A stretch of 64,000 nt of DNA from Halonotius pteroides (GTDB lineage Archaea; Halobacteriota; Halobacteria; Halobacteriales; Haloferacaceae). The notes under the pieces were generated by a model that saw only the letters and a list, made by a program, of their open reading frames with translations, ran no database searches and was not told the origin of the DNA. Shown in pieces: positions 32,801-59,871 of the stretch; the first letter of the stretch is position 1, and each line of letters opens with the position of its first letter. The translations under genes and the position numbers were made by a program. The stretch is from NCBI RefSeq assembly GCF_003605635.1, contig NZ_QMDW01000005.1, positions 1-64,000 of the forward strand, given 5' to 3'.

Positions 32801-33722
32801 CGTCAGCGAGGAGGGCGACTACGAACTTACCGTGACCGCACGCGACGTCGATGTCTTCGCCACGGCCGCCGAATCGAGTGATGGCGACGCCGAGCCTTCC
32901 GACGGAGAGGACACGGATCGTGGCGAGGGCGAGTCATCCGGCGAGGTGGACCTCTCGACGGACGCCTTCGACGAAGAGAGCACACGGTTCGTCGAGGCGA
33001 CTTCCGCTCGACCCGTCGGCTTTATCACCGTCGAACACACCTTCGATTCGGACGACCTCGAGACGGCGACACACCGGTTCCGTGTTCGCAAGAGCTACTT
33101 GGCGGCCACTGGCGCGACCGCCGAGAGTGTCGCCCTGTACCGCGAGGAGCCGGAGGGCTACCGCGCGCTGTCGACACGGCGCGTTGGCGAAGACGACGCG
33201 TACTACTACTTCGAGGCGGACACGCCGGGCTTCTCGACGTTCGTGATCGGCACAGAGGCCCCGATATTCGACCTCGGAGGGCCAACGCTCGAGCAAGCCG
33301 ATGTGGAGACCGGTGTGATCGACGCGAGCGTCCCGGTCGAGAACATCGGGACCGAGCCGGGGACGTACACGGTTCGACTGCGCGGTGACGGTGTCGTCCT
33401 CGCAGAGACCGAGGTGTCGGTGCCGGCGGGTGAGACCGTCGAGGCAACCGTGCGAGCGACCGTCCCCGACGCCGATGGGCTGGCGCTTACCGTCGCAGGA
33501 GAATCGTTGGGAGAGTTCACCGTCGAAGACAGCGATGCCGATGGGTCCGAACGCACGACAGACGCGGGAGTACAATCGACCGCGGACGCCGAAGATGCCA
33601 CCGATGAGCCCTCCGACACAGCCGACGGATCGGCCCCTGGTGGACGATTCCTCGTCCTACTGGTAGCTGCTGTGCTGGTCGTGGTCGCCGTGTGGGCACT
33701 GCGGCGAAGGGACGAGCCGTGA
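26862..33722 (+). CDS. Giant GLUG-repeat surface protein, second copy type
   Basis: A 2,286-residue exported protein. GTG start; signal segment at residues 5-30 ending GVAAAQ. Two early halves share the block YEI-x5-LQCI ... DLDAHYELVSDVDASATSGWN, followed by GLUG units. About forty GLUG units (VGGLIG/VGGLVG every 25-35 residues) fill residues 150-1800 and should form a long beta-solenoid. A Big_1-like Ig domain sits at about 390-470. After a Ser/Asp/Gly linker comes a PGF-pre-PGF domain (about 2030-2134), then a CARDB-like domain and a C-terminal membrane helix with RRRDEP. Unlike the 241-10023 protein there is no PGF tripeptide before the helix (APGGRF instead), so it is probably a membrane-spanning protein and not an archaeosortase substrate. 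Role: adhesion or cell contact, by inference. Confidence 0.92.
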   Translation: MRRSLVWLAVVLVAVVGLTSSGLVGVAAAQDTAPTCSAVSFSGGNGSADDPYEIENVSQLQCIEKDLDAHYELVSDVDASATSGWNDEKGFEPIGSCTEVGEADPWEECSGQQFTGTFDGNSHTVSGLTIDRPDTNGVGLFAAADEARFTNLRLASVNITGGENTGGLAGQLVSDKINTKDGFVGNVSVNGIVTGELDTAGVVGHGLDITLEDQIVFIGTVVGSDEVGGILGRSSEATAVSTSYVRATVEAKGDELGRVYGDEAVAGGLVGNSGNPSDFTNVYTVGSVSGDVAGSIVGGGNAPSKFEDVYWDTDKGPNDAVGGYEPDGVVTPLSTAEMQGVTAEENMDFDWAGTWQSVAGDYPVFQWEAAAVGESSIAGIDATDVTAVVNETGGVTVVATDEFGNRLESMSISVDATDGLSGIATDDTETTDSNGQATFTFTEETAGTYDLTFSADESITDTATVTIREGVNCAVVEYSGDGSTDDPYEIDSLAKLQCINQDLDAHYELVSDVDASATSGWNDEKGFEPIGNSSQPFTGTFDGNDSTISELVIDRPQTEGIGLFGHVGTDGEVRNATLEAAEVTGGDEVGVVVGDSAGSVTNVTASGNVTGDEYVGGVVGYADSGVISDSHGSVTVNATNSVGGLVGQGWSNAAIRESVATGSVNASGSWAGGLVGDIYGDSSIKNSMASGNVTGSGDVGGLIGYSEGVVTNATAAGTVSGSDNDVGGLIGYTASGELANVTAFGDVSGEANDVGGLVGDNSVTVTNATASGNVSGEYDEIGGLVGNNSGLVTNVAASGTVTGDDEVGGLIGDDDASVVRNATASGNVTGDTEAGGLIGVSSGTVRDVTASGSVTGTTDVGGLIGDSSESVVQNATASGNVTGDEEAVGGLIGDVDEGGKILNSYATGDVSSSASWAVVGGLVGDSSGERIADSFATGNVTTDGENVGGLVGIHRSGNITNVTSSGAVSGTSNVGGLIGKVAYSPDTVIRNASATGNVTASGTKIGGFVGLSASGSGTVIDSVARGDVNVTEGYSRSTALAGGFIGKNQFTTLTNVSASGDVYVPDANRVGGLIGENNGESLTDAIARGNVSGEGDVGGLIGRDVGRSELIVNATATGQVTATGDDVGGLIGFSARPKTLENIRATGHVTGNKEVGGLVGDVRSGIELTNATASGDVEGTQYVGGLAGELYQPTITDATATGDVTSTATAGSSYAGGLIGEMPAGTISASAATGNVTAAGSHVGGLVGLLQDSEFSDEPAQINESYATGDVTGNQSVGGLAGKAIRTNITNAYATGSVDGNASLGGLVGNVSGGNVTLSYAVGAVADEPAAGGLIGTVHNSPTVQNTYWDNQTTERTSSAGAGAQSLLTVGLKGDNAKTNATGFDFQNTWDIRSGAAVSYPYLRNNTQSPPPGLESPFAGGTGSESSPFEIKNWYHLDNVSRLPGANYTLVADLDSNTTGYDEVANASANDEKGFEPIGSSEQRFVGTFDGRNRTISNLYINRNLNYVGLFSYVGEGGDIYNLTVVDVNITAELHVGGVAGTNGGTLRNISVGGTVRSTSEGYSNSGGLVGENTGTVRRATADVTTSGTKTVGGLVGINGGTIKYSSANGNVSGSQSVGGLVGVNFARGKTATIEQSSVSGDVTGDEFVGGLAGQNFNSVLNTSSANGTVTGDSYVGGLAGVAVGGQITDASANATVEGTTSVGGLVGTTRNETVVHSYAVGNVTGDTAVGGLVGNHTGANANVTEAYAAGTVSGGTDVGGLIGTTQASPTVESAYWDTETTAQSSSEAGTGLNTSQLKANESLAGFDFQHTWDVVDNETHSSYPYLRNNTQSPPPGIHELAPTPGAGGDGNDDRDSGQSNEESSDSNDNSGNGASTSGGSDSDDGDNGRPSVSVRSMAQPDAAGAQDGESDVAPTSTTGFVVSMRNVDAGEQIAVDFTEQRRPTASQPTDEEAPSTENEETPSGESAPRNVQSDGLVLTVSEEGDYELTVTARDVDVFATAAESSDGDAEPSDGEDTDRGEGESSGEVDLSTDAFDEESTRFVEATSARPVGFITVEHTFDSDDLETATHRFRVRKSYLAATGATAESVALYREEPEGYRALSTRRVGEDDAYYYFEADTPGFSTFVIGTEAPIFDLGGPTLEQADVETGVIDASVPVENIGTEPGTYTVRLRGDGVVLAETEVSVPAGETVEATVRATVPDADGLALTVAGESLGEFTVEDSDADGSERTTDAGVQSTADAEDATDEPSDTADGSAPGGRFLVLLVAAVLVVVAVWALRRRDEP

Positions 33723-44291: not shown

Positions 44292-46175
44292 CTAGTCTGA
44301 CGGTGGGGCGGCTGCCTGTTCGAACAAATGACAGAATACTGTAAACTCCGCTCGTCGCAAGTGATAGTGGAACGTCTGTCGCGAAATGCCGAGTTCCGCC
44401 GCTAGTTCCTCACCCGTTTTGAGCCGTGGCCGCTCATAGTATCCCCCCGAATACGCTAACTGCAGCGCCGCTTGTTGTCGATCAGTCAGCTTCTCGTCGA
44501 CAAACTGTCGGAGATACGTCGGAGTCAACAGTCGTCGTTGAGCGACGAGTTCGATATCCGAATACTGTTCTCGAATCGCCTGTACGACAGTCGTTGAATC
44601 GACCGTTTCTGGGAATCTCCCAATCACTCTCGCCGTGTCGTCTTTGATCGTCACCGTTTGGAGTTCGCCGTCGAAGGTATCGAAGATAGCGGCAATTGAC
44701 TGGTCAGTGGCAGTTATGTGGAAACGAGCACTCTCCTCCACGTCTTTCAGGAGTCTGAAATCGGAGGCGGATGGAAAACCGCTCTCAACGAGACTCCGAA
44801 CAATCTGGGGTGACAGCCCGTTTACTGTCCAGAAATGGCGCTCTCTTCCGTCAGAGAACGAAACAGTCGAATCAAGAGCCAGCTCGAAGTCTGCGTCTGT
44901 CTCTGTACGGCAGAGTCGAGCAATCTCCGCGGACCTGAACTCCAGTTCTGCGGTGGGATCAAGCACGTCCCTGCGTTCAAGAGCGTACAATGCGTACCCG
45001 ATGATCTCGCCAAGTTCTGTGAGGATGCGCCGTTTCTCTTGATCGAATGCTTCGGTGCGATCAGCGTACACTCCAAGCACACCGTATACCGTTCCTTGGT
45101 GCCTCAAAGGAACAGAAGCGTACGATTGAATCCCGTGGGTATCGGCAAGGTGTCGCCAATAGTCGTAGGGAAGATCAGCGAGATCATTTTGAACGTGCAA
45201 TTCACCGGTTCGTACGGCGTGGGCAGCAGGACCCTCGCTGAGCGGAGGTGACTGTTGATCCAAGATTCCATCAAGATAGGTTTCCATATCTCCAGCCATC
45301 GTCCAAGGTTCGAAATCAACGAACGGTGGCGATAGCTCACCCATCACTGTCGATTGGTACGCATCGAACTCCAAGAGCGTGTCACAGACAGCCTGTGCAA
45401 TCTCCTCGCGCGTCTCGGCCCGCGCGACGGTCTGGACGATTGCCCGAATTACGGTATTGAGTCGATTGACGCGTTGGAGGTGTTGCTTGCGCTCTTTGAG
45501 TTCGGTGATATCCTGCCCCTCCGGCACAAGCAATAGTATTTCGCCGTATTCGTTCGACACAGGGCGGAGTGAAAAGTCGATGACTGCGGTGCGGTCGGCA
45601 CCCTGAACTTCAACCTCGAACCGAACGAATTCACCGTCGGCTGCCCGGTCGATAGCGTCTCTCAGCTGGGCTTGCGTCCCATCGGAGAGCTGCCACCAGT
45701 AGGTCTCCCAGAACGGCTCCCCAACGACGTCCTCTCGGGTCAGGCCTCCGAAAGAGAGTGCAGCCTCGTTTGCATCGATAAGCGTGCCGTCGGGCTCCAG
45801 AACACCGATAAAATGGAACGTCTGGTTGAATATTAGCTCATAGAGGGTCTCTCGGTCGATATTTTCCATCGATAGCTGGAATGAATCCTCCCGCTCTCGG
45901 AGTCGACTATGCGCCGACGGTGACCGAGAGTGAGCAGCACTGGATAGCTCATCGAATGACTGTTCCGCGGGTCGCCACCACACTCGACCTCTAGCCCCGA
46001 CTTTCTTTGTCTCAAGAGCTCCTCGATTGACCAAGATGTCTAACTTGTTGTAAATCGTGCGCGCTGTACAGTCAAACTCGGTTGCGACCTCCGTCGTTGT
46101 CACCGGCGTGCCAGCAGGTGCGAGCGCGTCGACAGCATTCAACACGGTGGATGGCGAGGGCGTCGCAGAACTCAT
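44292..46175 (-). CDS. HTH-PAS-GAF-Bat transcriptional regulator
   Basis: 627 residues with an HTH at both ends. Residues 1-72 are a winged helix (VTTTEVATEFDCTARTIYNKLDIL). A PAS domain follows (about 108-225), with sequence close to the last PAS of the nine-PAS kinase (QTFHFIGVLEPDG, FEVEVQGADR). A GAF domain spans about 235-385, then the bacterioopsin-activator region, then HTH_10 (LTDRQQAALQLAYSGGYY, then RQTFHYHLRRAE). There is no REC, so the signal enters through PAS/GAF. The paired HTHs suggest it bridges two sites or binds a long operator. It is the fourth Bat-type protein here. Confidence 0.92.
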   Translation of the reverse strand: MSSATPSPSTVLNAVDALAPAGTPVTTTEVATEFDCTARTIYNKLDILVNRGALETKKVGARGRVWWRPAEQSFDELSSAAHSRSPSAHSRLREREDSFQLSMENIDRETLYELIFNQTFHFIGVLEPDGTLIDANEAALSFGGLTREDVVGEPFWETYWWQLSDGTQAQLRDAIDRAADGEFVRFEVEVQGADRTAVIDFSLRPVSNEYGEILLLVPEGQDITELKERKQHLQRVNRLNTVIRAIVQTVARAETREEIAQAVCDTLLEFDAYQSTVMGELSPPFVDFEPWTMAGDMETYLDGILDQQSPPLSEGPAAHAVRTGELHVQNDLADLPYDYWRHLADTHGIQSYASVPLRHQGTVYGVLGVYADRTEAFDQEKRRILTELGEIIGYALYALERRDVLDPTAELEFRSAEIARLCRTETDADFELALDSTVSFSDGRERHFWTVNGLSPQIVRSLVESGFPSASDFRLLKDVEESARFHITATDQSIAAIFDTFDGELQTVTIKDDTARVIGRFPETVDSTTVVQAIREQYSDIELVAQRRLLTPTYLRQFVDEKLTDRQQAALQLAYSGGYYERPRLKTGEELAAELGISRQTFHYHLRRAEFTVFCHLFEQAAAPPSD

Positions 46176-46813: not shown

Positions 46814-48043
46814 ATGAGTGACTCGTCGGACGATTACACACTTGAGGATGCGAAAGACGAAGTCGGAATTCTCCGCCGTGTAACCGACGACGTCGTTGAA
46901 GCGATTCAAAATGCTGAGAATGAAGATGTTTTGCAGTTCTTGATCGAGGACGAGAAGCTCGACGTGATTCACGACGGGAAGCGGGGGTTGGGTCGAGTCC
47001 GACATGCCGTGCTTGAGTCGCCGCTGGCCTCAGACCGCCTCAAGCGAGTCGTGAGTCTCCGCGGTGACGAAACGCCCGAAGAGATACTCGTCCCCAATAA
47101 CGTGGAGCGCAACGCCAAAGTCGCGCTCGAAGCCGGGAAGCCTGTTGTACTGTATGGGCCCACTGGAACTGGGAAGACGACATTCGCGAAGCAACTCGCT
47201 CGTGAGACCGGTATCGGCTACGCGCTCAACACTGCGACACCTTCGTGGACGCCGTCGGACATCATCGGGGGAATCAGCCCGGACTACACCGGTGACTCAC
47301 TAAGTTACCGAACGAAACTTGGGTGTGTGTCCGAAGCTGTTCAGCGTGCTCGCCGGTTCGATGTCGAGTATGGCGTCATCCTCGACGAGATCACGCGAGC
47401 CGATATCTCGAAGATCTTCGGCCCACTGTATACCGCCATCGAGAACCCCCATCAGACCATCTTCGAGACCGACGAGGGGGAGACTATCGAACTGGACGAG
47501 CGGGTGAACATCATCTGTACGATGAATATGTCCGACCGAACGGTGAACGAACTCGACAACGCGATCACCCGCCGGTTCGCCATGATCGAGCTCGACGAGT
47601 ACGAGGAGGACAAGCGCCGACAGCTGTTCAAAGACTGGATCACCACACACGTCACCGACCACACAGACCTCGGAGAAAACGAGATCCTCCGTCTGTTCGA
47701 GCGGGACTACCAAGGAATCAACCACGGCCACGAATCGACGTCACAAGGGTCGATTATGCGCTTCGGCCCGATGCATTATCGCGACGTCGCCGTCTTCCTT
47801 GGCGTCGGCTGTCGAGAAGGCGGAGAGTACGAGTATGACCAGAAAGATGCGGTCGGACAGGCGTTCCGAACGTACATCGTTCCGCGACTCCTGAACGCCG
47901 CCGCATTCCCGCAGATCGAGCGAATCGCGGAACACTACCGCGCGATGAACGGCGAGTTCGAGGAGTTCGATCTCGCTCCTGCTGCCGAGCTCGCTGAACG
48001 GGAACTCGAGCAGGAACGACGCCAGATGGGCTCCTACGAGTAA
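46814..48043 (+). CDS. mcrB: McrB-like AAA+ NTPase
   Basis: 409 residues from ATG 46814 (frame open to 46703, but the TATA box lies between). The Walker A motif is GPTGTGKTT (about 115-123), Walker B is GVILDEITRAD, and the MNMSDRTV segment corresponds to the NxxD signature that McrB uses for nucleotide choice. The arginine finger region is AITRRF. About 100 N-terminal residues form an unrecognised helical region where McrB proteins carry a variable DNA-binding domain; no YTH/PUA/EVE-like domain is recognisable, so the recognised modification is unknown. The stop overlaps the start of the nuclease subunit (TAATG). Together they form a modification-dependent restriction pair. Confidence 0.9.
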   Translation: MSDSSDDYTLEDAKDEVGILRRVTDDVVEAIQNAENEDVLQFLIEDEKLDVIHDGKRGLGRVRHAVLESPLASDRLKRVVSLRGDETPEEILVPNNVERNAKVALEAGKPVVLYGPTGTGKTTFAKQLARETGIGYALNTATPSWTPSDIIGGISPDYTGDSLSYRTKLGCVSEAVQRARRFDVEYGVILDEITRADISKIFGPLYTAIENPHQTIFETDEGETIELDERVNIICTMNMSDRTVNELDNAITRRFAMIELDEYEEDKRRQLFKDWITTHVTDHTDLGENEILRLFERDYQGINHGHESTSQGSIMRFGPMHYRDVAVFLGVGCREGGEYEYDQKDAVGQAFRTYIVPRLLNAAAFPQIERIAEHYRAMNGEFEEFDLAPAAELAERELEQERRQMGSYE

Positions 48044-49803
48044 TGAGCACCGTTGACGAAGTCTACGAGTACGGGCAGGATACCTTCAACGTCCCCGAGC
48101 GCGGGGAAATCCGGATAGAGGGCTGTCCGTCGTCCATCGGGGACCAGCTTCGTCGCGCGTCTTTCACACAGGAGAGTCCCGGCGTCTTCACGAAGAGTCA
48201 AGCAGCACTCGACGGCGAGCAGGAGTACGAAGTCGTCACGGTCACCGTAGATGGCGACGAGAACGAGGTACTCCACGTCGAAGCGACGGACATCATCGGC
48301 GTCGTGAGCCTCACACCGTCGTCGAAGGTCCAGGTCGATCCGAAGATCGACTGGGAGCACATCTTCGATATGCTGCTGGCCGTCTACGACCAGAACCGCT
48401 CCATCGAGTACCACGGAATTCCGCTCCAAGACTTCCTCTCCGACGACATTCATCTCGACGACGTCTTCGTGGTGCTGGCGATCAACTACCTCGACGGGTT
48501 GGAGACGATCCACCGTCAGGGATACATCCGCGACCTCATCATCCGACGTGTTGACAGCCTCGATGGTCGGGGTGAGATCGATGTCGAACAGACACTCCTG
48601 AACCACGCCCGCGGGACGCTGGAGCCACACTGGATCCGCAACGAGACCGAGTACGACAACGCCGCAAACTCGCTGCTCCACTTCGCTGGAAAGACACTGC
48701 TTCGGCTCTTTCGGCAGAACTCCCACGAGAACGACCATCCTGCGTACGACCGCATCTTCTCGGAAGTTCACCGAGAGGTGGAGCGCCTGGAGAGTATGGG
48801 CGTCGGTAGTGGGTTGGACCGGATGGACGAGTATCGACGCCTCTCGCTCCACGATCTCCCGAAGCAGCGTCGGTACTACCAGAAGGCGTTCGACGTCGCC
48901 AAAGCCATCATGTCGTCGTCGCTCGGCCAGCAACTCCGCGACGGTCCGCGAGAACTGGTCGTGGACTACGTCCTGAATATGGAGTCGCTGTTCGAGCAGT
49001 ACTCCCAGGTCGTCATCGAGCGCGAACTCTCGTACATCAAGTCCTACGACCACCTCGGCGACCTCGACGACGTGACGCCCGTCCGATCACCGTCCGTGAA
49101 TCCGTTCGAAGGTGAGGGCCAGATCTACCACGAACCGGACCACGCGCTACAGGAGGGCGACGAGACACTGGCTGTGTTGGACTCCAAGTACTACGCGGAA
49201 GGCCACGATCCGGTGAAGGAATCACCGTCCCGGTCGCGGCTGTTCAGCTACGCCTACCTCCTCCACTCAGACAGGCTCGCATTCCTGTGTCCGCTTCTCG
49301 AACCAAAGCGTCGTCGGGTCGCCCAGACTGGAGCCGAACTGCAGATCGTCTCACCCGAGCAGGAGTTCACGCTGGACGGATACGGCGACGTCATCCACAG
49401 CTATCTACACGACGTACTCGTTACGAGATCTCCCGAACTCGAAGCCTTCCGCGCCGTCGCGGAGAACCGACTGTGCCTCGACGGTGTCGAAGAATCGGCC
49501 CTGAGCGACGCGAAGTCGATGAGCGGTCCGTTCACGTTCAAGGACACGCGGGATTTCTCGCTCCGTGTCCTCAAGGCTGCTGCCGATGAGCATTCGTGGG
49601 AAGTCCGCAATCGGTACGACTTAGAGCAAGACGGCGACTGGACACGAGAACAGATCGAGACGCGCTGTGAACAGCGCTACGAGCATACGACGACGTGCGT
49701 GCCGGTGTTTTGTCGTGACCACGGGCAAGAGTGGATCGACCTCTACTTCCTTCAGAATGGAAGTGGTGAGATCGAGAAAGAGGGGCCGTTGAAGCTCCTG
49801 TAG
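48043..49803 (+). CDS. mcrC: McrC-like restriction nuclease subunit
   Basis: 586 residues, longer than typical Escherichia coli McrC. The N-terminal and central parts match the McrC family (VVSLTPSSKVQVDPKIDW, NYLDGLETIHRQGYIRD, HFAGKTLLRLF). A PD-(D/E)xK nuclease core is visible: Asp in YHEPDHAL (about 365) and LAVLDSKYY (about 378-383). The last 140 residues are an extension of unknown fold. The start overlaps the McrB stop by one base, so translation is coupled. McrC cuts DNA when the McrB ring translocates; in this island it would attack modified foreign DNA. Confidence 0.9.
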   Translation: MSTVDEVYEYGQDTFNVPERGEIRIEGCPSSIGDQLRRASFTQESPGVFTKSQAALDGEQEYEVVTVTVDGDENEVLHVEATDIIGVVSLTPSSKVQVDPKIDWEHIFDMLLAVYDQNRSIEYHGIPLQDFLSDDIHLDDVFVVLAINYLDGLETIHRQGYIRDLIIRRVDSLDGRGEIDVEQTLLNHARGTLEPHWIRNETEYDNAANSLLHFAGKTLLRLFRQNSHENDHPAYDRIFSEVHREVERLESMGVGSGLDRMDEYRRLSLHDLPKQRRYYQKAFDVAKAIMSSSLGQQLRDGPRELVVDYVLNMESLFEQYSQVVIERELSYIKSYDHLGDLDDVTPVRSPSVNPFEGEGQIYHEPDHALQEGDETLAVLDSKYYAEGHDPVKESPSRSRLFSYAYLLHSDRLAFLCPLLEPKRRRVAQTGAELQIVSPEQEFTLDGYGDVIHSYLHDVLVTRSPELEAFRAVAENRLCLDGVEESALSDAKSMSGPFTFKDTRDFSLRVLKAAADEHSWEVRNRYDLEQDGDWTREQIETRCEQRYEHTTTCVPVFCRDHGQEWIDLYFLQNGSGEIEKEGPLKLL

Positions 49804-49814
49804 GTGGCCAAAGT

Positions 49815-50453
49815 ATGTATCAAACCCCGCATCAATGGACGACGAAAGAGGGACAGACCCACGTCTTCTACGATAACAACCAGCCTCCGAGTGGGGGGTT
49901 CGGCTGGACGAGCCTCTGCGACGAATGGAGAGTTCCCATCGAAGGAGAGCACTTTGAACTTCAAGAAGACGTAGCTGAAGATTCCATAACGTGTGAACAC
50001 TGCCGCGACCGACTCGATAAGGCGTATATCGAACTTGAGGACGATGATATCGTGTGTATGCGAAGTTGTTTGATCAGGATTCGTCGAGACGGAGATGGGG
50101 GAATTATCGAGGCTCGCCGACTTTGTCGTGGCAAACCCCTTCATTACGAGATTGCGTTCGAACCTGAGTCGTTCACCGGTGACCTGCACGACCATGCTGA
50201 CGATGTCTGTGAAGAATGCTGGCAGAATTACGTCAATCATCAGTGGAGCGGTGACGTTGAAGGCGGGGAACTTCAGATTGAGTACTGGACAAACGAGGGG
50301 AAGAAGACGTACTATGCAGCGTCCGCTGAAGCAGTAAACACCGGACCAGAAGCGAAGCTTCGATTGACTAGTGAGAATGGTCTCCAACAGGAGCTTGCGC
50401 GGGACAAAATCGAGTCAGTCACACTAACTCCGGCACAGATCGTAGATTACTAA
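49815..50453 (+). CDS. Unknown Cys-rich protein linked to mcrBC
   Basis: 212 residues starting 11 bp after mcrC, so likely in the same operon. Two CxxC pairs (CEHCRDRLDKAY near 60 and CEECWQNYVNHQ near 137) could form zinc sites. There are no catalytic motifs that I recognise. The C-terminal half, with IEYWTNEGKKTYYAA followed by TLTPAQIVDY, may be a small beta domain. It converges on the methylase operon with only about 75 bp between them. It could be a DNA- or modification-reading accessory of McrBC; that is inference from position. Confidence 0.75.
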   Translation: MYQTPHQWTTKEGQTHVFYDNNQPPSGGFGWTSLCDEWRVPIEGEHFELQEDVAEDSITCEHCRDRLDKAYIELEDDDIVCMRSCLIRIRRDGDGGIIEARRLCRGKPLHYEIAFEPESFTGDLHDHADDVCEECWQNYVNHQWSGDVEGGELQIEYWTNEGKKTYYAASAEAVNTGPEAKLRLTSENGLQQELARDKIESVTLTPAQIVDY

Positions 50454-50529
50454 CCCGCGACGATTGGATGGGTGGACCTCTACTGACGCCTTGTTGAACT
50501 CGGAGTCATCTGCCCTCGTCGTCGCACAC

Positions 50530-50913
50530 TTAGAACGGTGCGACGAGCCAGTCTCCCTCTTCCTTCCGTTCGAGTTGTGGGCCGAAGACCTGTTGCAGGG
50601 AGTGCAGCGCGTCGTTGTAGCGAAGGTCGTAGGTCTTCCCGCTTCGGTGGAACGTTCCTTCGACGACGAACTGGACAGTCGGGCTTTGATACTCCAAGTC
50701 GTTCGCTCGTCGATCCATTGCACGAGCGATTTCGTCTGCTACATCACCGTCTTCGAACGCGTCACTCAGTCCAACGACGCTGACCTTGTCTGGCACGTCG
50801 TCGTCTTCGAGACGCTTGATGAACTCCTCGACCGGCATCTGATGGTCGAACACGTCGTACTCCCCTTCGACGATGATGTTGTATCGTCCGGGGATTTGGC
50901 CTGGTCCTGCCAT
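50530..50913 (-). CDS. Unknown small acidic protein in methylase operon
   Basis: 127 residues. It starts 2 bp after the stop of the DUF1156-type methylase, so it belongs to that operon as the third gene. No known domain is recognised. The predicted pattern is beta-alpha-beta with a charged middle (VEEFIKRLEDDDVPDKVSVV) and a C-terminal beta part (PTVQFVVEGTFHRSGKTYDL). Being conserved in position with an ATPase and a methylase would make it a candidate subunit, inhibitor or specificity factor. High GC and acidic residues look like normal coding in this organism. Confidence 0.8.
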   Translation of the reverse strand: MAGPGQIPGRYNIIVEGEYDVFDHQMPVEEFIKRLEDDDVPDKVSVVGLSDAFEDGDVADEIARAMDRRANDLEYQSPTVQFVVEGTFHRSGKTYDLRYNDALHSLQQVFGPQLERKEEGDWLVAPF

Positions 50914-50915
50914 GG

Positions 50916-53600
50916 TTAGTAACTCGTGATGTCCCGATCTCCGAGTACTCGCGTGTACGTGTCGTCGCCGGTCACGTCGGCGAGTCGGCCGGCGAGTTCG
51001 CGCATGTCGTCATCGACGTCCCACTTCTCGACGTAGTTCTGGACCGCCTGCCCCTTCTCGTAGCGGTAACGCAGGAACTGGAGCTTGTCGAGGTTCGAGA
51101 GGTGATCTCCGCCGTCGCCGTTGACGCGCTCCTGAATGTACGCCTGGCGCTTCTCGTTGTCCCAGGTTCCGAGCTCGAAGCCGTCGTCTTGGTTGTACAG
51201 GCGCGTACTCTTGAGGTCCTCCGGCGTGGCGTTCGTCCCGCGGCAGAGCTTGTTGACATCGTCGAACGATGGGTTCGACGAGTCAAGCAAATCGACGAAT
51301 ACGTCCTCGACGCCGATATCGCTAGCCTCCTGGATGATGCCATAAATCTCTTGCACCACTTCCTTTGCGGACATGATCTCGCCGTCACGCTGTACCTTCC
51401 CGTGGTGTTTGGAGTACTCGCGGAAACACTCACCCATCTCCATCACGCCGATGTCGCCACGGGATATGTCACGACTCTCTTCCAGCCTCTGACGAGTCCG
51501 TCTAGCTGTTCTGTAAATTTCTCTCCGCAACGAATTCCATGAAATGGGAACAGTTTCGTCCCGCGGGCGAGCGACAACAATGATATCAAACGATACAGAT
51601 TCGCCAGCTTCCAACTTGTCAAGATCAGCAGTAATCGGATAAGATGCAGTTATTTCGAACCCGACATGACAGAGAGCTTCAAGTAGTTCTCCCCAAGATT
51701 CGGAGTCGCTATGATGGTATGTGAACGTGAGTATTCCATCATCTTTTAATGCGCGCTTAATATTTCTGAAAGCATCCCTGAGTTCTTGCTCAAATGTCTC
51801 AGCATCCTTCTGCTCGGCAGGATTGGAGACAATACTCTCTTTTCTGGGTGAGTGCTTAGGTTCGAAGAATTCATATTTGTCCTTCAGGATCAGCCGCTGC
51901 CAGACATAGAAATAGTCGGCCAGCTCAGAATACATAACATTATGATAATAAGGTGGATCAGTAATGACCGCATCAAATTCATCTTCGTATTCGATATCCC
52001 TAATATCTCCTTGATATATTTCGGCGTCTTCACCTACAGGCTTACCGAACGGTGGTGATTTAATTATTTCATCCCCGTCTGGGTAGCGGTCGTATGGGGC
52101 GTTTCCGTATTCTATCCCTTTTTTCAGACGCTCATAAGCGCGTTCGAAGTTACGCGATCCTTCCGACGCTCCCCATGGATTATTTTCGGCAGGACGTTTG
52201 GGCGGGTCAAATGAATTCGATTTAAATATATGATCAATTGCGTTCGATCCAGTTTGATATGTAGTCATTAGTGTTGAGCCCCGAAGCGCATCACTAAAGC
52301 TCAACAATAGGAATTCTTTCGCTGTCTCATCAGACAATTCGGATATACCCTTAAGCATCTGACTAAGGCAGAGCAGTTGGCGTTCATTAAACATCTCATC
52401 CCAGGAGCTAATCCCATGAATTGACAAATTCCCTCCACCAGGGGCCGAACCCTCGAAATCTGTCGCAGCGGTTTTCCAACCCGGACGGATTTCATGATTA
52501 GGCGTATATTGCTTTAACTCATCTTCGTTCGCCCACCGATTCACTGCTTCTTCATATAAATCCAAGTCCTCCTGTCTGGTCGCTCTATATCCCTTGATAT
52601 CTCCCTTGTCTAGTCTGGGGTTGTCCTTACACTCTTCACAATAATATTCTAGTCCGACAAGCCGCTGGTTATATCCATTTTGCTCCTCAACGGCATCAGT
52701 TATTCCATATTTTTGACCGCATTTGCCGCAGCTATATTTCGTGCCATTAGAAGTGATGTTCCCTGTCTTTGGGGAGAATTCATTACCACAGTTGGTACAA
52801 GTACACTCACTCTGCCAATTGTCCACATATACGAATTCTTGACAATCTGGACACAAAACAATTTGTTGCCCCTTACGATCTCCGTATCTACCTTTTGCCA
52901 CACGATAGTCATTAAACAACGAGACAGTGTTATCACAAGAAACACAATCTAACTCTTTTACCCAGAAGTAGCAGATGACTTCGGCATGATGATCACCGTG
53001 TGGACAAGGTGTTTTGTAGTATTGTCTCACCTCCTCTTCCATCTTAGAACTAAGCTCTTCATACGCATCCTCAATCTCATCAAGATCGGTACTGCCTGTT
53101 TCAAGTTCTTTCTTGCTAATGAACCAAGATACTGGATTCAAGTCACCACCAGTCACGCTAGCTCCAAATCTCGATGCTTCAACTAGAGATGTGCCACCTC
53201 CCATGAATGGATCCAATATTTTCTTATCTTGGATTCTAACATCTTTTGGATAAAGTTCCCACAAAGTATCTGGGTTAGACATATCTACTTGATTAATTAG
53301 GTTCGCTATCGTGTCTGTGTCTGTTGAAAAGTCATCCAGCGATGAATTTTCCCCAGGCTCAAACACCTCCACCTTTTCGGGTGAATCTAATAGTGTATAA
53401 AGAGAGATTGTTCTGAACACACAGCCAAGGCGGCGAGCCCACCATTTATGCATGGTATATATAGGGCGGTAATACCGCTTTGCGATACCTCTTGCCTCTT
53501 TTTCTGCTAACTGGTTTACTTGTTCAATAGGAAAACCTCGCTCAATCGGAAGTTCCTCCTGCTCGTTACTACTTGTAGAATTCTGTGATTCCTGAGACAT
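50916..53600 (-). CDS. DUF1156-type adenine-specific DNA methylase
   Basis: 894 residues. The N-terminus is typical of DUF1156 (PIERGFPIEQVNQLAEKEAR, then MHKWWARRLG). SAM-binding motif I is DPFMGGGTSLVEA (about 129) and the catalytic motif IV is DPPYYHN (about 548), which indicates an N6-adenine or N4-cytosine amino-methylase. Between them lie several CxxC pairs (CVSCDN, CPDCQE, CTNCGN, CGKCGQ, CEECKD) that should form zinc ribbons. The start overlaps the ATPase stop (TAATG). The first 700 or so codons are AT-rich with different codon use, whereas the last 190 or so are GC-rich like the flanks, so the gene is a mosaic. It probably marks self DNA for the helicase-ATPase machinery. Confidence 0.92.
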   Translation of the reverse strand: MSQESQNSTSSNEQEELPIERGFPIEQVNQLAEKEARGIAKRYYRPIYTMHKWWARRLGCVFRTISLYTLLDSPEKVEVFEPGENSSLDDFSTDTDTIANLINQVDMSNPDTLWELYPKDVRIQDKKILDPFMGGGTSLVEASRFGASVTGGDLNPVSWFISKKELETGSTDLDEIEDAYEELSSKMEEEVRQYYKTPCPHGDHHAEVICYFWVKELDCVSCDNTVSLFNDYRVAKGRYGDRKGQQIVLCPDCQEFVYVDNWQSECTCTNCGNEFSPKTGNITSNGTKYSCGKCGQKYGITDAVEEQNGYNQRLVGLEYYCEECKDNPRLDKGDIKGYRATRQEDLDLYEEAVNRWANEDELKQYTPNHEIRPGWKTAATDFEGSAPGGGNLSIHGISSWDEMFNERQLLCLSQMLKGISELSDETAKEFLLLSFSDALRGSTLMTTYQTGSNAIDHIFKSNSFDPPKRPAENNPWGASEGSRNFERAYERLKKGIEYGNAPYDRYPDGDEIIKSPPFGKPVGEDAEIYQGDIRDIEYEDEFDAVITDPPYYHNVMYSELADYFYVWQRLILKDKYEFFEPKHSPRKESIVSNPAEQKDAETFEQELRDAFRNIKRALKDDGILTFTYHHSDSESWGELLEALCHVGFEITASYPITADLDKLEAGESVSFDIIVVARPRDETVPISWNSLRREIYRTARRTRQRLEESRDISRGDIGVMEMGECFREYSKHHGKVQRDGEIMSAKEVVQEIYGIIQEASDIGVEDVFVDLLDSSNPSFDDVNKLCRGTNATPEDLKSTRLYNQDDGFELGTWDNEKRQAYIQERVNGDGGDHLSNLDKLQFLRYRYEKGQAVQNYVEKWDVDDDMRELAGRLADVTGDDTYTRVLGDRDITSY

Positions 53601-56600
53601 TATTTCTGGAAACTAATTTCGATTTTTATGCTTGACGCCTCGTCTGGCATATGTTCGAACAGATCCTGTACCTTGGTGTAATCCTGTTCTGAACGCAATG
53701 TCAAACTCACCTGTGTTCGCTCGACATCAGCGGTCCCTTGTAATGCACTGGGAATGCCTTCTCTATCAGGTAACATGAAGGTGATGTCCCCGTATTCGAC
53801 ACTACCTGTTTGATGATTGTTCCTCCACTTACTCCGCATCGCGGCGACGTCGTCGCCGTTGAACTCGAAGCGCCACGTATCGGCCTCCGTGTCGGCCTTC
53901 CGGAACGGATAGCCGGGCACCCAGTCGGACGCTTTCTCCGAGCCGGTCGTGTTGACCACGTACTCTGGCTCCTCGTCTTTCCCGATGTTCTCCAGCAGGT
54001 ACGTCCGCACCATGTACTCGGTGACGCTGCTGTCGAACCGGTCAGTGACCTTGTTGACCGTGAACTGGTCGCCCGGATCTAGGTCTTCAATGTACGACAG
54101 GATCTGATCGCCGATCCGGTCCGACACCGTCGGGACGATCTTCACCGTCGTCGGGTCGCGGTCGCCGAGCGATCCGAGGTACCGACCGCCGGCTTCCAAT
54201 ACGTAGTCGTCTACGAGGAACTCGTTGACCGCTTCACGAGCGACCGATTCGGTCTCGTCCGGCGGCAGGAACACTGCTTCATCCGACCGTACCTCCCCGA
54301 TAATCGTGCCGAGATTCGCGTACCCGTCGTCGTCGATGTGCGCCTCGATACGGTCCACGAGGGACGATGCGCCGACGACCTCCGCCCCGCCGACATCGCG
54401 GAGCGTCGCGTCAGACTGCGGCTTGTCGAGGATCTCATTCCCTTTTACGATGACATACTGGTCCTCCCGGGCGAGCCGACCGATGGCCCGCATCACGACG
54501 TCGTGGCTGTCGCCGTCGATCCAGATCTCGCCGTCCTCAACGAGCTCCAGCTCGAAGTCACCGATATCAACTGCAGTCGTTCCGCTCCCGAAGCGCTGGC
54601 GGAGTTCCTGCTCGGCATCATCGACACCCCACACGTCCACGTCGTCCTGCTGAACGAGTACAGTGTCCAGCGAGCTTCCCGAAAGGTCGTCGCGGAACCC
54701 GCCGGTGTCACGGGCAAGCACCGGCTTGCCGTCGAGCGCTTCAACAGTCGCGTTCAACACGTCGTTCGCGCTGCCGGGAATCGGGAGCTCCGGGTCACGG
54801 AGGAACTGTTCATAGATGTCCTCGACCGATATCTCTCCACGTCGTTCCAGCAGGTCCTCGGCAATGTCCCAGACGTGCGACTGGAGGTCGAACGGGTCAG
54901 CTGCCGCAGAGTCCGCAATGTTCGAGGCGTCGAGTTCCGCCTCGTCGAGGACGAAGACATCGAGGTCCATCGGCTCCACTTTCGCCCACTCGTCGTCGTC
55001 CATCAGATTGTCCCCGTCGATCACATCGCCGTACAGGAGTTGGAGTTCCTCACGGAGTTCATTCTCCTCCTGCTCCTTCATACTGCGAATCGACGTGCGG
55101 ATTTCGTCGTCGAGAGACTCGTCGGCGAGTACCTGCCGCGCGCCCTCAATGTATCGTGCTTTGTCGATGTACCGTGTACCCGACTCGATGGCCTTGTCTC
55201 CCGAGGGCTGGACGAACACGAGCGTGTTGCGCCACTCGCGGCCGCGACCGTCGTTCGTGATGACCTTCTTCACCTCTGCTTGGGTCCACTGGCCGTCCTT
55301 CACGACGACCTTCACCTCACGGTCGTCCGGAATGTCCCGCATATCGTTGGTCCTGAATCCGACTGGGTGCGCGTTCGATCCGAAGATGTCGGTGATGAAG
55401 TCCGCGATCTCGGCCTTCGCCGCCGTCTCCGACACGTCAACGGCTGCGTTCCGGATGAGCGCGTTGGGGTTCTGTCGGTCCCGGATGGCGTACTTCCCGT
55501 TCAGCTTGTGGAGGTGCCACGCGACGCCGTGCAATCGTTCGAGGTTGAGAACGACGTCAGAGACGAGGTCACCCGTCTGGTAAGCACCCATCACGATCTC
55601 CGAAACCTCTGCGCCCTCGCCTTCGCTCGGCTTCAGAGAGTAGAGTAGAATCGTGTTCAGAATGCGGCGACCGTGAGGCACTTCATCCGTGTCAACACGA
55701 CTCTTGATATCTCCGGTGGCAGCGTTCAGGCGTTCATAGTTGATCTTCGCCAGTTCGTCTTCGAACTCGATGGCATCGATGTCGCCGTGAGTGATCAGGT
55801 CCGTCTGATCCTGCATCTGCAAGAGAACTTTAGAGAAGAGGTAGATCATCCCCCGCGTGTTCTGGTTCCCTTCATCGGCGTAGTAGCGTGTCTCAAGCGC
55901 GTCCAGAAGCACGGGGTGGAATGGGTAGAGGTCGTGCATCTCCGACAGCAGGTCGTCCGGAAGATCGACGTGCCCCTCTGCCTGATCGTACGCGTCGAAG
56001 TATCCATTGACGATTTCTCGGGCAGCGCTCTCGTCTACGGAGTCGATCAGGCGGTGGCGAAGGACTTCGCGCTTGTCCACCTGGTTGTTCATATTGACCT
56101 CGACCGCTTGTTCCCGATTCAGAATGTCGTGAACCTCGGACCCCTCACGGAGCACCGAGACGATGGTGTAGAGTTCGAGGTCAGAGAGTGCAGTCGATTC
56201 GAGCAGCGACTGAAGGAACGCCTTGTTCGCGCTCTTGCGGTCGCCCTGCAGCGTGTCGAACCAGTCCTCCAGCTCGTCCACAAAAAATGCGATCGCGTCG
56301 TCGCCGACGGCCTCCTGAATCGTCTGCATATCGGGATACCCGCCCGACTCGAACGTCCCGGGATCGTAATCGAGGGACTCGAAGAACGGTTCCCAGAGGT
56401 ACTCGTACTGTTCGTTCTGCATCGCAACCGTGATCGGCGTCGCCGACTCTGGAAGTGCAGCGTCGAATCCTTCGACTGAATCACTCGCCCACGCACCTGC
56501 TGCCGTGGGATCGTCGAAACAGTGGTACAGCGCCACCATCTGGTGAGACTTCCCACTGCCGTACGGACCGTAGAGGATGTGCGTCCCACGTGGATCATCA

Positions 56601-56815
56601 CCAGTCAACGAATCACGGAGGATCGAAAGGGCCTCTCGAAGGCCCTGCGTCATCAGTGTCCGCTCGAAGAAGAGTTCCGCGTCAGACTCGAACTCGTCGT
56701 CGTCGTCAACGTTGTAGAGTTTTACCTGCCCGTCGATCTGGCCCTCTTCCCGAAGCTCCCGGCTGAGGGTCACCGTGTCTTCGAGAGTATTCGATAAGGA
56801 TCCCGTCTGTACCAT
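53600..56815 (-). CDS. DUF499-type AAA+ ATPase
   Basis: 1,071 residues from ATG 56815 (the upstream TTG frame is less likely). Walker A is GPYGSGKSH (about 83-91), Walker B is IAFFVDELEDW, followed by sensor-like YTIVSVLREGSE. The architecture matches DUF499/COG1483 ATPases, which occur next to DUF1156 methylases in archaeal defence islands. The C-terminal half contains several winged-helix-like repeats (RGEISVEDIYEQFL, DGYANLGTIIGEV, VTEYMVRTYLLEN). The last 70 or so codons fall inside the AT-rich block that continues into the methylase. It is transcribed divergently from the helicase gene; a TTTATT stretch near 56852 may be its TATA box. Confidence 0.9.
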   Translation of the reverse strand: MVQTGSLSNTLEDTVTLSRELREEGQIDGQVKLYNVDDDDEFESDAELFFERTLMTQGLREALSILRDSLTGDDPRGTHILYGPYGSGKSHQMVALYHCFDDPTAAGAWASDSVEGFDAALPESATPITVAMQNEQYEYLWEPFFESLDYDPGTFESGGYPDMQTIQEAVGDDAIAFFVDELEDWFDTLQGDRKSANKAFLQSLLESTALSDLELYTIVSVLREGSEVHDILNREQAVEVNMNNQVDKREVLRHRLIDSVDESAAREIVNGYFDAYDQAEGHVDLPDDLLSEMHDLYPFHPVLLDALETRYYADEGNQNTRGMIYLFSKVLLQMQDQTDLITHGDIDAIEFEDELAKINYERLNAATGDIKSRVDTDEVPHGRRILNTILLYSLKPSEGEGAEVSEIVMGAYQTGDLVSDVVLNLERLHGVAWHLHKLNGKYAIRDRQNPNALIRNAAVDVSETAAKAEIADFITDIFGSNAHPVGFRTNDMRDIPDDREVKVVVKDGQWTQAEVKKVITNDGRGREWRNTLVFVQPSGDKAIESGTRYIDKARYIEGARQVLADESLDDEIRTSIRSMKEQEENELREELQLLYGDVIDGDNLMDDDEWAKVEPMDLDVFVLDEAELDASNIADSAAADPFDLQSHVWDIAEDLLERRGEISVEDIYEQFLRDPELPIPGSANDVLNATVEALDGKPVLARDTGGFRDDLSGSSLDTVLVQQDDVDVWGVDDAEQELRQRFGSGTTAVDIGDFELELVEDGEIWIDGDSHDVVMRAIGRLAREDQYVIVKGNEILDKPQSDATLRDVGGAEVVGASSLVDRIEAHIDDDGYANLGTIIGEVRSDEAVFLPPDETESVAREAVNEFLVDDYVLEAGGRYLGSLGDRDPTTVKIVPTVSDRIGDQILSYIEDLDPGDQFTVNKVTDRFDSSVTEYMVRTYLLENIGKDEEPEYVVNTTGSEKASDWVPGYPFRKADTEADTWRFEFNGDDVAAMRSKWRNNHQTGSVEYGDITFMLPDREGIPSALQGTADVERTQVSLTLRSEQDYTKVQDLFEHMPDEASSIKIEISFQK

Positions 56816-56930
56816 CTTGATACTTAAACAAACCTCGGTGGCACCCAATAAACACTATGGTCCCGTTGAACACAGCCCGAGACGCGACAACAGTACAGCG
56901 TGAAGATCTGTGGCTCTCGGTCACCAAATG

Positions 56931-56935
56931 TATAT
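56931..56935 (+). promoter_or_regulatory. TATA box of the helicase gene
   Basis: TATAT centred about 28 nt before ATG 56961, inside the longer open frame. This indicates that the helicase begins at MSGYDL and that the mRNA is leaderless. Confidence 0.6.
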
Positions 56936-56960
56936 CACGCACACCTGTCTCTACGAACGT

Positions 56961-58715
56961 ATGAGCGGGTACGACCTCGTCGATATCGAGGTCACACACG
57001 AATCTGCTGACGATCTGTTTGATTCGTTGTCTGAGGACAGCAATAGAGGAGACCATCTACAGAGTATCCAAGCTGTCCGTCTCCAAGCCGGGCAACCTGA
57101 CTCCGAACTGCGGTCGTTGAAAGAGTTGGACGAGAACTCCGTCAAGCTACTGGAACACCAGGTGGACGCGGCCTATCGGGCCCTCTTCGAGATGGACGGA
57201 AAGGCACTCCTCGCTGACGAGGTCGGGCTCGGAAAGACCATCGAGGTCGGGATGATCCTCAAGGAGATGCACTTCCGACAGACGGACGAATCCGTCCTTA
57301 TTCTCACCCCTGCACAGTTGGCCAAACAGTGGCAGGCGGAACTCCGTGAGAAATTTGGACTTGACTTCGTCTGCAACTACGACGACGAGTTCGAGGACTT
57401 CGATGCGCACGACTACATCATCGCAAGCATCGACACTGCGAAGAGCGAGAGACACCGTGAAACGGTCCTCAAGCGCAACTGGGACGTTCTGGTGCTTGAC
57501 GAGGCTCACTACGTCAAGAACGAAGAGACGGACCGCTACGACCTGATAGACCAGCTCTCGTACAATTACGCCTTCTTCCTGACAGCGACGCCCATTCAGA
57601 ACGAGCTGACGGATCTGTACAACGTCGTCTCGTTACTCCGACCCGGACTGTTCGGCACACGCGACGTCTTTCACCACTACTTCGTGAACAGCAATCAGGA
57701 GACGCTGGTGAATCGGGACGAACTACAAGACAGACTGAATAAGGTGATGGTTCGGAATCGACGGGAAGACACGGACATCGATTTTACGGATCGGACTATC
57801 GACACACGGACGTTCGACCCCACGCCGAAGGAACGCGAGCTCTATCAAGCGGTCTCTAACTACGTGAAAGGGGCCTACAGCCAGGACCAGGGCCAGAAGC
57901 TGGTACTAATGCTCTTACAAAAGGAGGTCGTCAGCAGCCCAGTCGCTCTCAAGCAGACTATTGAGAAGCGACTCTACGAGCAGTCGGAGCTCACACACGC
58001 GGACGAACTGGAATCCATTCTGGATCTGATCGATGAGATTGATACGGTGACCAAACAGGAGCGACTTTTGGACATCGTTGAGGAAGCCCGTGATACCGTC
58101 GAAATGGGGAGGGTAATCGTCTTCACGCAGTTCCGAGCGACCCAACAGCAGATCCTCGACAGACTTGCCTCAGAGGGATACACGGTTCACGCGTTCCACG
58201 GTGGGCACTCAAGCAGCGAGAAGGAGCAAATTGTCGAGGACTTCGAAGAAGAGGGCGGAATCCTCGTTTCAACCGACGCAATGAGCGAAGGGCGTAATCT
58301 CCAGTTCTGTAACATATTGGTTAACTTAGACTTGCCGTGGAATCCGATGCGCGTTGAACAGCGTATCGGGCGTGTACACCGGATCGGGCAGAAACGAGAC
58401 GTATTCATCTTCAATATGGCGTTGAATGATACGGTCGAAGAGTACGTACTGGAACGGTTGTACCACAAGATCGATCTGTTCCAGCAGAGCGTCGGGGAAC
58501 TGAGCTCGATCCTGAGCCGCTTGGAAGAGTCGGGGACGAGCTTCGAAGACGAGATTTTCGAACGCCTAGTGAACGCTGGTTCCGAGGTCGATCTTGAGAA
58601 CGACTTCGATGCGATGGCCGTTGATCTTCAGGAGCAGCGTGATCTCGCTAATAAACTTGAGGAGTTCAACAGCGGCGTGTTCGAAGGGTTTGATCTAGGG
58701 GAGAGCGATGACTGA
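56961..58715 (+). CDS. SNF2-family helicase/translocase
   Basis: 584 residues from ATG 56961. The helicase motifs are in order: LLADEVGLGKTIEVGM (motif I, about 83-98), TPAQLAKQW (Ia), VLDEAHYVKN (II, about 178-187), LTATPIQN (III), VIVFTQFRATQQQIL (IV), STDAMSEGRNLQFCN (V) and QRIGRVHRIGQ (VI, about 466-476). This is a RapA/HepA-like SNF2 translocase that would move along duplex DNA by ATP hydrolysis. It lacks a nuclease domain. Its end overlaps the next gene by 8 bp (ATGACTGA). With the divergent ATPase and methylase it forms a helicase-methylase-ATPase set. Confidence 0.94.
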   Translation: MSGYDLVDIEVTHESADDLFDSLSEDSNRGDHLQSIQAVRLQAGQPDSELRSLKELDENSVKLLEHQVDAAYRALFEMDGKALLADEVGLGKTIEVGMILKEMHFRQTDESVLILTPAQLAKQWQAELREKFGLDFVCNYDDEFEDFDAHDYIIASIDTAKSERHRETVLKRNWDVLVLDEAHYVKNEETDRYDLIDQLSYNYAFFLTATPIQNELTDLYNVVSLLRPGLFGTRDVFHHYFVNSNQETLVNRDELQDRLNKVMVRNRREDTDIDFTDRTIDTRTFDPTPKERELYQAVSNYVKGAYSQDQGQKLVLMLLQKEVVSSPVALKQTIEKRLYEQSELTHADELESILDLIDEIDTVTKQERLLDIVEEARDTVEMGRVIVFTQFRATQQQILDRLASEGYTVHAFHGGHSSSEKEQIVEDFEEEGGILVSTDAMSEGRNLQFCNILVNLDLPWNPMRVEQRIGRVHRIGQKRDVFIFNMALNDTVEEYVLERLYHKIDLFQQSVGELSSILSRLEESGTSFEDEIFERLVNAGSEVDLENDFDAMAVDLQEQRDLANKLEEFNSGVFEGFDLGESDD

Positions 58716-59871
58716 CGCCGCCGTTCCTGTTACCCAATCCGCAGTAGAGCAGTTCACGGAACGATATCTCCGCTCTCTCGGCTGTTCCATTGAGCACAGC
58801 GATGACTATTGGGTGGTGTCTGTACCCGATACAACCGACACCGAGATTCCCCACGGGAAACACACGCTCGTTCGTGGGGAAGGCGCTCCAGACGGCGACG
58901 ATGATAGCACGAAACGGCTACACCCAGAGAGTGCGTTCTTTCAACGGCTCCTCCGTGAGGCAGCAGAACGGTCACCTACCGGCAAGCTATCGATAGAGAG
59001 TGAATCCGACATTGAGACTCCAAAGTGGATCCAACGCAGCGATGTTGAAGTACAAAACGCGCAATTCGTCCCGTACTACGACCGTACAGCCGCCGTGGTG
59101 CTCTTTCGTGTCGGCATCGAGACCGTCAGTGAATATCAAAAAGAGTTCCTCCGCGCCGTCGCCGTGGATTCCCGGTCAGAGGAGCACCTACCGAGATTGG
59201 CCGAATCCTTTCTCGAACTGACCTCGGTAGAGTCCAGCGAAGCCCCCAGTGGCAGCGCGGAATTGACACAGACAGAGGCGCGACCGCTTCTGGATACGGC
59301 TCGTGAGTTGGTAATCAACGAGATACAGGACCGACTCGACGAGATCCATCGAGAAGCCTCCCGTGCGGCAGATTCTGAAGTTGAAGAGTACCGCCAGCTG
59401 CAAGAGCACCGCATCACCGAACTACAGGAAGAACACTCGAACTTGTCGGCAAAGATTAACGACCTGAGCGAGCAAATCAACACCGGGGACGAGGACTCGC
59501 GCGTTCAGGCGCTGCGGGAACGGAAGGAACTCAAATCGGAGTATGAAGAACTCAACGAAACGCTCAACGAGCTACGGGAGCGTCGAGACGGTGGATTTCC
59601 CGAGCGCCAGCGAGAAATCCGAGAACGGCACTCACTCGATGTACAGGTCACGCCGCTCACTCTGACGGAGGTCGAATACGAGCGGGGGGAGGTCGATTTC
59701 GAGCTTACTAATGGGAGCAGAGGTCAAACCGTTACTCTCGGATACGGGAGCGGGATTGGGGTGACTGAGACCGTTCGATGTGCGTCATGTGATCAGGAGC
59801 TCTCTGAACAGGACCCAGTTCAAAAGATTTCGAACGGTCTCGAATGCCAGAGGTGTGCTAAAGAGCGCTAA
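58708..59871 (+). CDS. Coiled-coil/zinc-ribbon partner of the SNF2 helicase
   Basis: 387 residues, translationally coupled to the helicase by the ATGACTGA overlap. Residues about 1-180 form an alpha/beta domain without a known motif. Residues about 190-300 form a long coiled coil (RLDEIHREASRAADSEVEEY, QEEHSNLSAKINDLSEQINT). The C-terminus is a zinc ribbon, CASCDQELSEQDPVQK ... CQRC. The layout resembles the C-terminal parts that follow the motor in single-chain RapA-like proteins, so here the motor and its accessory region may have been split into two genes. No catalytic residues are seen. Confidence 0.8.
   Translation: MTDAAVPVTQSAVEQFTERYLRSLGCSIEHSDDYWVVSVPDTTDTEIPHGKHTLVRGEGAPDGDDDSTKRLHPESAFFQRLLREAAERSPTGKLSIESESDIETPKWIQRSDVEVQNAQFVPYYDRTAAVVLFRVGIETVSEYQKEFLRAVAVDSRSEEHLPRLAESFLELTSVESSEAPSGSAELTQTEARPLLDTARELVINEIQDRLDEIHREASRAADSEVEEYRQLQEHRITELQEEHSNLSAKINDLSEQINTGDEDSRVQALRERKELKSEYEELNETLNELRERRDGGFPERQREIRERHSLDVQVTPLTLTEVEYERGEVDFELTNGSRGQTVTLGYGSGIGVTETVRCASCDQELSEQDPVQKISNGLECQRCAKER

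What the first reader, a model, noticed from the sequence alone, without database searches (positions are those of the whole stretch)
46814..59871. McrBC plus helicase-methylase-ATPase defence island with three unassigned embedded proteins
DUF1156-type methylase, DUF499-type ATPase and SNF2 helicase form a set reported in archaeal defence islands (I recall the name Hma, helicase-methylase-ATPase). Here it adjoins a modification-dependent McrBC pair and includes unassigned genes at 49815, 50530 and 58708 in operon positions. A system that modifies DNA beside one that attacks modified DNA needs compatible specificities, so they probably co-evolve.
Basis: partly seen in the sequence, partly recalled or inferred. 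Interest (0 to 1): 0.78.

Follow-up and report, generated by a model that had tools for sequence, protein, structure and literature searches.

The report
BREX-related defence locus with McrBC nuclease
This salt-loving archaeon carries a seven-gene anti-virus cassette in which a DNA-marking enzyme, a scanning ATPase and a helicase are permanently coupled to a McrBC-type DNA cutter; the cassette spreads between distant relatives while only the marking enzyme's target-reading part is swapped, which suggests one integrated system rather than two neighbouring ones.

Summary
They are not two neighbouring systems but one conserved, mobile cassette: McrB-McrC> <P127-DUF1156 methylase-DUF499 ATPase< SNF2 helicase-P387>. 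In 293 genomes of the order, 46 of 48 McrC homologues of this family (>=42% identity) lie within 9 kb of this methylase family. Identities of McrB, McrC, ATPase and helicase rise and fall together across loci (rho 0.75-0.90), but the methylase's recognition region is exchanged freely (median 50% identity; no correlation with McrB's N-terminus, McrC or ATPase). The nearest relatives are DUF499-centred BREX-related systems (Hma; Rakesh & Krishnan 2026). Sister loci carry a standalone PglZ and a P127 homologue but no McrC of this family; McrBC-type loci carry no PglZ. I infer that McrBC replaces PglZ as nuclease: an apparently undescribed fourth subtype. Of the 'unassigned' genes, P127 (perhaps a degenerate P-loop subunit, weakly supported) and P387 (helicase partner) are core; P212 is optional cargo. 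In relatives, slots around the methylase hold GmrSD and Hma-embedded candidate genes. That McrBC cuts unmodified DNA is inferred (LlaJI precedent), not shown.

The parts
46814..48043 (+). McrB-like AAA+ NTPase (409 aa from ATG 46814): Walker A GPTGTGKT, DEITRAD, McrB signature MNMSDR
   Evidence: motifs 100% conserved in 37 relatives
48043..49803 (+). McrC-like nuclease subunit (586 aa), PD-(D/E)xK residues D366, D380-S-K382
   Evidence: PF10117; residues invariant in 43 relatives
49815..50453 (+). P212: Cys-rich small protein, optional cargo of the McrC/P127 slot; not core
   Evidence: present in 6 cassettes only, copies also at unrelated loci
50530..50913 (-). P127: core small protein; AF2 model weakly resembles a P-loop (RecA/AAA+) domain, no Walker A; candidate iSTAND (BrxB/BrxF-like) subunit; homologous to the ~130-aa protein of PglZ-type loci
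   Evidence: (hhalign E 2e-11, 1.6e-12)
50916..53600 (-). DUF1156 amino-methyltransferase (DPFMGGGT, DPPY); recognition region ~326-525 exchangeable, C-terminal ~200 aa conserved
53600..56815 (-). DUF499 (HmaC/BrxC-like) ATPase, Walker A GPYGSGKSH, Walker B DELED; likely ATG start at 56815 (ORF open from 56848)
56910..58715 (+). SNF2 helicase without any fused nuclease (601 aa as ORF; real start probably 56928 or 56961)
58708..59871 (+). P387: helicase partner (N-terminal alpha/beta domain, long coiled coil, Zn ribbon), overlaps the helicase gene by 8 nt
   Evidence: homologues elsewhere also lie next to a helicase homologue

Best explanation
One integrated restriction-modification-like defence system of the DUF499-centred BREX-related (Hma) kind in which McrBC is the nuclease. 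Proposed working: the DUF1156 methylase marks a host motif set by its recognition region; the DUF499 ATPase, the helicase with P387, and P127 form a scanning complex with the methylase's constant C-terminal part; unmarked incoming DNA makes the complex load or license McrBC, which translocates and cuts. Shown by sequence: gene set, linkage, intact catalytic motifs, alternation with PglZ between sister types, exchange of the methylase recognition region only. Inferred: that McrBC attacks unmodified DNA, that specificity comes from the methylase, and that the proteins form a complex.
For: (1) Linkage: 46 of 48 McrC homologues >=42% lie within 9 kb of this methylase family; the exceptions are a contig fragment and a decayed locus; same in 49 named haloarchaeal loci apart from six distant stand-alone McrBCs and short or decayed contigs. 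(2) Fixed architecture. (3) Core genes co-vary: McrC-ATPase rho 0.90, McrB-McrC 0.81, ATPase-helicase 0.81. (4) The methylase recognition region is swapped on a constant chassis: in 81 pairs with McrC >=94% and ATPase >=91% its median identity is 51%; window vs L055: ATPase 97, McrC 96, P127 95, recognition region 32, last 100 aa of the methylase 98-100%; no significant correlation with McrB N-terminus, McrC or ATPase. (5) PglZ in 15 sister loci with a P127 homologue, 0 in the McrBC-type loci. (6) No other nuclease domain recognised in the conserved core; McrC active-site residues invariant. (7) Precedent: LlaJI, where McrBC homologues restrict unmethylated DNA next to methylases (PMC1459862); McrC 'linked' and 'alone' are split by one fully supported branch.
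Against: No experiment. The related stand-alone McrBC has the same size, so a retained modification-dependent activity is not excluded. Co-variation of core genes may reflect linkage alone. That PglZ and McrBC exclude each other is partly by clade. P127's fold matches are weak (Z <= 4.6) and were not compared with BrxB/BrxF sequences. A nuclease role of P387 or of cargo proteins cannot be fully excluded.
Confidence: 0.68

Rival explanations
1. Companion model: a BREX-related system without its own nuclease (blocking replication rather than cutting) plus a permanently attached type IV McrBC that destroys virus DNA carrying foreign modifications, so that the two cover unmodified and modified invaders.
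For: Stand-alone McrBC relatives of the same size exist with no conserved partner; GmrSD, a type IV enzyme, is frequent cargo in the same loci, and Rakesh & Krishnan 2026 list GmrSD as auxiliary effector of BREX/BR.
Against: Unlike cargo, McrBC is fixed in place and near-invariably present, takes turns with PglZ between sister types, and co-varies with the ATPase and helicase.
Confidence: 0.2
2. One reading: separate Hma and modification-dependent McrBC with matched, co-evolving specificities.
For: Both gene sets are present side by side.
Against: Methylase recognition region changes while McrB N-terminus and McrC do not follow; the rest of the set moves as one cassette.
Confidence: 0.05
3. 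McrBC as a guard that kills the cell when the methylase or other core parts are inhibited or lost (abortive infection or addiction).
For: E. coli McrBC can cause host death on genome methylation (PMC2614495 abstract); the cassette is mobile and on plasmids.
Against: No sequence feature argues for it specifically.
Confidence: 0.07

Closest known systems
Type-3 DUF499-centred BREX-related system (Rakesh & Krishnan 2026, PMC12839542)
   Same: DUF499 ATPase, DUF1156 methylase, helicase without nuclease, plus a small extra subunit; the PglZ-type haloarchaeal loci L084, L086-L099 have a homologue of P127
   Different: PglZ absent here and McrBC present; helicase carries a separate partner gene P387; ATPase only 28-30% identical to that of the PglZ-type loci; the paper's main text never mentions McrB or McrC
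Hma (PADLOC; Payne 2021, PMC8565338) = Type-1 BREX-related
   Same: helicase, methylase, ATPase trio; embedded candidate genes HEC-05/HEC-06/HEC-02A in the loci
   Different: the ~1200-1300-aa helicase of Hma-type loci is replaced by a 601-aa helicase plus P387; no fused nuclease; all scores far below curated cut-offs
LlaJI-type restriction-modification (PMC1459862)
   Same: McrBC homologues next to methylases, restricting unmethylated DNA
   Different: LlaJI's McrB-like subunit binds LlaJI-site DNA itself; no DUF499 ATPase, SNF2 helicase or P127; here McrB does not follow the methylase's recognition region
Stand-alone McrBC (type IV), incl. L185-L189 and L194
   Same: McrB and McrC homologous (51-57% and 35-41%)
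   Different: no linked core genes; separate fully supported branch in the McrC tree
DISARM
   Same: helicase's best model is DrmD (285 bits)
   Different: below DrmD cut-offs (610, 950); no DrmB or DrmC among the scanned genes, DrmA model hit only by the helicase itself

Membership tests
Hma (PADLOC) | helicase HmaA, methylase HmaB, ATPase HmaC together | tested here: inconclusive
   homologues of all three adjacent, but partial matches and far below NCBIfam cut-offs
BREX-related Type-1 | helicase fused to PD-(D/E)xK nuclease | tested here: not met
   helicase 601 aa, only SNF2 and Helicase_C type domains
BREX-related Type-2 | DUF3780 gene and HKD-helicase | tested here: not met
   no DUF3780 or PLD/HKD match in any core protein
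BREX-related Type-3 | standalone PglZ in the locus | tested here: not met
   PglZ profile hits 15 sister loci and none of the McrBC-type loci or the window
BREX-related Type-3 | iSTAND subunit | tested here: inconclusive
   P127 homologous to the small protein of PglZ-type loci; model weakly P-loop-like; not compared with BrxB/BrxF
DUF499-centred BREX-related systems (broad) | DUF499 ATPase + DUF1156 N6-methylase + SNF2 helicase in one locus | tested here: met
   PF04465 and PF06634 above cut-off, PF00176; conserved linkage
McrBC | McrB AAA+ with MNxxDR motif and McrC PD-(D/E)xK nuclease | tested here: met
McrBC | cleavage dependent on modified cytosine | not testable with these tools
   needs biochemistry
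LlaJI-type R-M | McrBC-like restriction subunits linked to methylase, restricting unmethylated DNA | not testable with these tools
   linkage met; activity untested
DISARM | DrmA, DrmB, DrmC | tested here: not met
   no DrmB or DrmC model hit among the scanned window genes; DrmA model hit only by the helicase

The most novel reading that the evidence does not exclude
A fourth subtype of DUF499-centred BREX-related systems in which McrBC, elsewhere a modification-dependent nuclease, has been reprogrammed into a specificity-free effector: it cuts unmarked DNA chosen by the exchangeable methylase and the scanning complex, in the slot that PglZ fills in the sister type.
Probability: 0.5. Interest if true: 0.75.

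Novelty: new variant of a known kind. Interest (0 to 1): 0.62.

Why it matters
How BREX-type systems cut DNA is still debated. A clade in which the putative nuclease PglZ is replaced by a well-understood motor nuclease offers a direct test: the swap argues that PglZ is the effector, and McrBC's activity is easy to assay. It also shows McrBC recruited into a self-marking system without a matching recognition domain, and it names two conserved core proteins without a family (P127, P387) plus insertion slots that can be mined for new defence genes in haloarchaea.

Tried and rejected
Reading the cassette as two neighbouring systems: rejected by linkage and co-variation. P387 as a split-off C-terminus of the HmaA helicase: profile comparison gave nothing; instead P387 homologues head 690-1270-aa proteins next to another helicase homologue. 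P387 fold search: no significant match, mostly coiled-coil look-alikes. The '1 TAA' flags in one methylase subgroup: alignment running over the normal stop; the reading frames are complete. Methylase in viruses as counter-defence: nothing in viral contigs and only a distant Sulfolobus virus methylase among phages. Orphan methylases (8 loci) as provirus genes: most of the neighbourhoods read hold metabolic or transport genes, not phage genes. McrC outside the order: none in 295 genomes drawn from the phylum. DISARM membership: failed.

Full report
Observation. All eight ORFs are present at the stated coordinates. Family searches confirm McrB, McrC, DUF1156 methylase, DUF499 ATPase and SNF2 helicase, and give no confident family for the proteins at 49815, 50530 and 58708. 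Gene ends overlap or nearly touch within McrB-McrC, ATPase-methylase-P127 and helicase-P387, as in operons.

One cassette, not two systems. I searched 293 genomes of the order with the methylase and fetched 80 neighbourhoods. tblastn with all eight proteins and gene calling show one recurring set: McrB+ McrC+ P127- methylase- ATPase- helicase+ P387+, with variable genes only in certain gaps. The exact order occurs in 19 loci (window included), and in 6 more whose stretch does not show P387; deeper relatives have moved, inverted or multiplied methylase genes. A search with McrC over the same 293 genomes found 48 homologues of at least 42% identity, 46 of them within 9 kb of the methylase family; the exceptions are a short contig and a frameshifted, decayed locus. 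A scan of named genomes gave 49 haloarchaeal loci with the same picture. Six distant McrBC pairs (McrC 35-41%) stand alone; they form the other side of a fully supported branch in the McrC tree. No McrC of this family was found outside the order in a phylum sample. The cassette's McrC is on plasmids or secondary replicons of 11 listed haloarchaea, and close relatives belong to different families, so the cassette moves horizontally.

What varies. In 24 close cassettes the median pairwise identity is 89-91% for McrB, McrC, ATPase and helicase, 78% for P127, 54% for P387 and 74% for the methylase. Within the methylase the region ~326-525 is variable while the C-terminal 200 residues are nearly constant. 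Against L055 the window has ATPase 97%, McrC 96%, P127 95%, but recognition region 32% and the last 100 methylase residues 98-100%. Identities of core proteins rise and fall together (McrC-ATPase rho 0.90); the recognition region does not follow McrB's N-terminus (0.12, p 0.22), McrC (0.22, p 0.10) or ATPase (0.07, p 0.30). That the variable region is the target recognition domain is inferred from its position between the two catalytic motifs and its variability, and from the TRD insert described for these methylases in PMC12839542. If McrBC had its own matched specificity for or against the methylase's mark, it should follow these exchanges.

Relation to known systems. PMC12839542 groups Hma and relatives as DUF499-centred BREX-related systems of three types, by nuclease: helicase-fused REase, helicase-fused HKD, or standalone PglZ with an iSTAND subunit. 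Its main text never mentions McrB or McrC. A search for DUF499 with McrBC gave three papers; the one of them that I opened describes no such system in the passages found, the other two I did not read. The haloarchaeal loci L084 and L086-L099 consist of ATPase, a ~300-aa PglZ (weak Pfam, PADLOC PglZ E down to 1e-8), methylase and a ~130-aa protein homologous to P127 (hhalign E 2e-11 and 1.6e-12). PglZ is in all 15 of these and in none of the McrBC-type loci. P127's model (pLDDT 88) has only weak matches, but they are dominated by P-loop domains of RecA and AAA+ type (Z at most 4.6), and P127 lacks a Walker A motif: this fits, but does not prove, an inactive STAND subunit. P387 is the helicase's partner: its homologues elsewhere open longer proteins that lie next to a helicase 51-57% identical to this one.

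Mechanism. The conserved core holds one recognisable nuclease, McrC, with invariant active-site residues. Together with the PglZ/McrBC alternation and the LlaJI precedent this makes McrBC the likely effector. The marking and reading of self is probably set by the methylase, as inferred for BREX. The step from unmarked DNA to McrBC activation is unknown.

Cargo. Of 46 loci scored, 41 carry extra genes (154 in all), mostly in the gaps beside the methylase. They include GmrSD, Hma-embedded candidates HEC-05, HEC-06 and HEC-02A, and Fic, Mrr, Schlafen and OLD-type (GajA/AriA model) ATPase proteins. The window's only cargo is P212, found in six cassettes and also elsewhere. Several deep relatives carry two or three methylases.

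Limits. Everything is sequence-based. Core co-variation can arise from linkage. Effector exclusivity is between two clades. My confidence in 'one integrated system' is about 0.9, in 'McrBC is its nuclease against unmarked DNA' about 0.65.

Noticed in passing
L076:5003-11350; L044, L054, L058, L080: A second, unrelated McrB-like/McrC-like pair (clusters c3/c9, PD..ExK) sits next to an extra copy of the same methylase family; in L076 it forms a compact methylase-McrB-McrC operon without the other core genes.
   Followed up: partly
L134-L141, L144, L145: Helicase homologue (51-57%) followed by a 690-1270-aa protein whose N-terminal ~400 aa match P387 and whose long C-terminal part has no family: possibly another undescribed two-gene system.
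   Followed up: partly
L043, L079, L081, L083: Orphan copies of the DUF1156 methylase among apparent housekeeping genes, without the other core genes.
   Followed up: partly
L110 (G180:C1:372000-391900): Methylase gene broken into three pieces, one gap holding a transposase-like gene, while ATPase, P127, McrC and McrB look intact.
   Followed up: no
L143 (G067:C4): Decayed cassette: frameshifted McrC, truncated McrB, no methylase of this family found in the genome.
   Followed up: no
window 44292-46175: PAS-GAF-HTH10 (Bat-type) regulator directly upstream of McrB; cluster not seen next to McrB in the listed relatives.
   Followed up: no
window 14545-25133: Lower-GC stretch with a bacteriorhodopsin-like gene, two response regulators, a 1372-aa multi-PAS histidine kinase and a transposase.
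   Followed up: no
window 241-10023 and 26862-33722: Two very long ORFs (3260 and 2286 aa), not identified.
   Followed up: no
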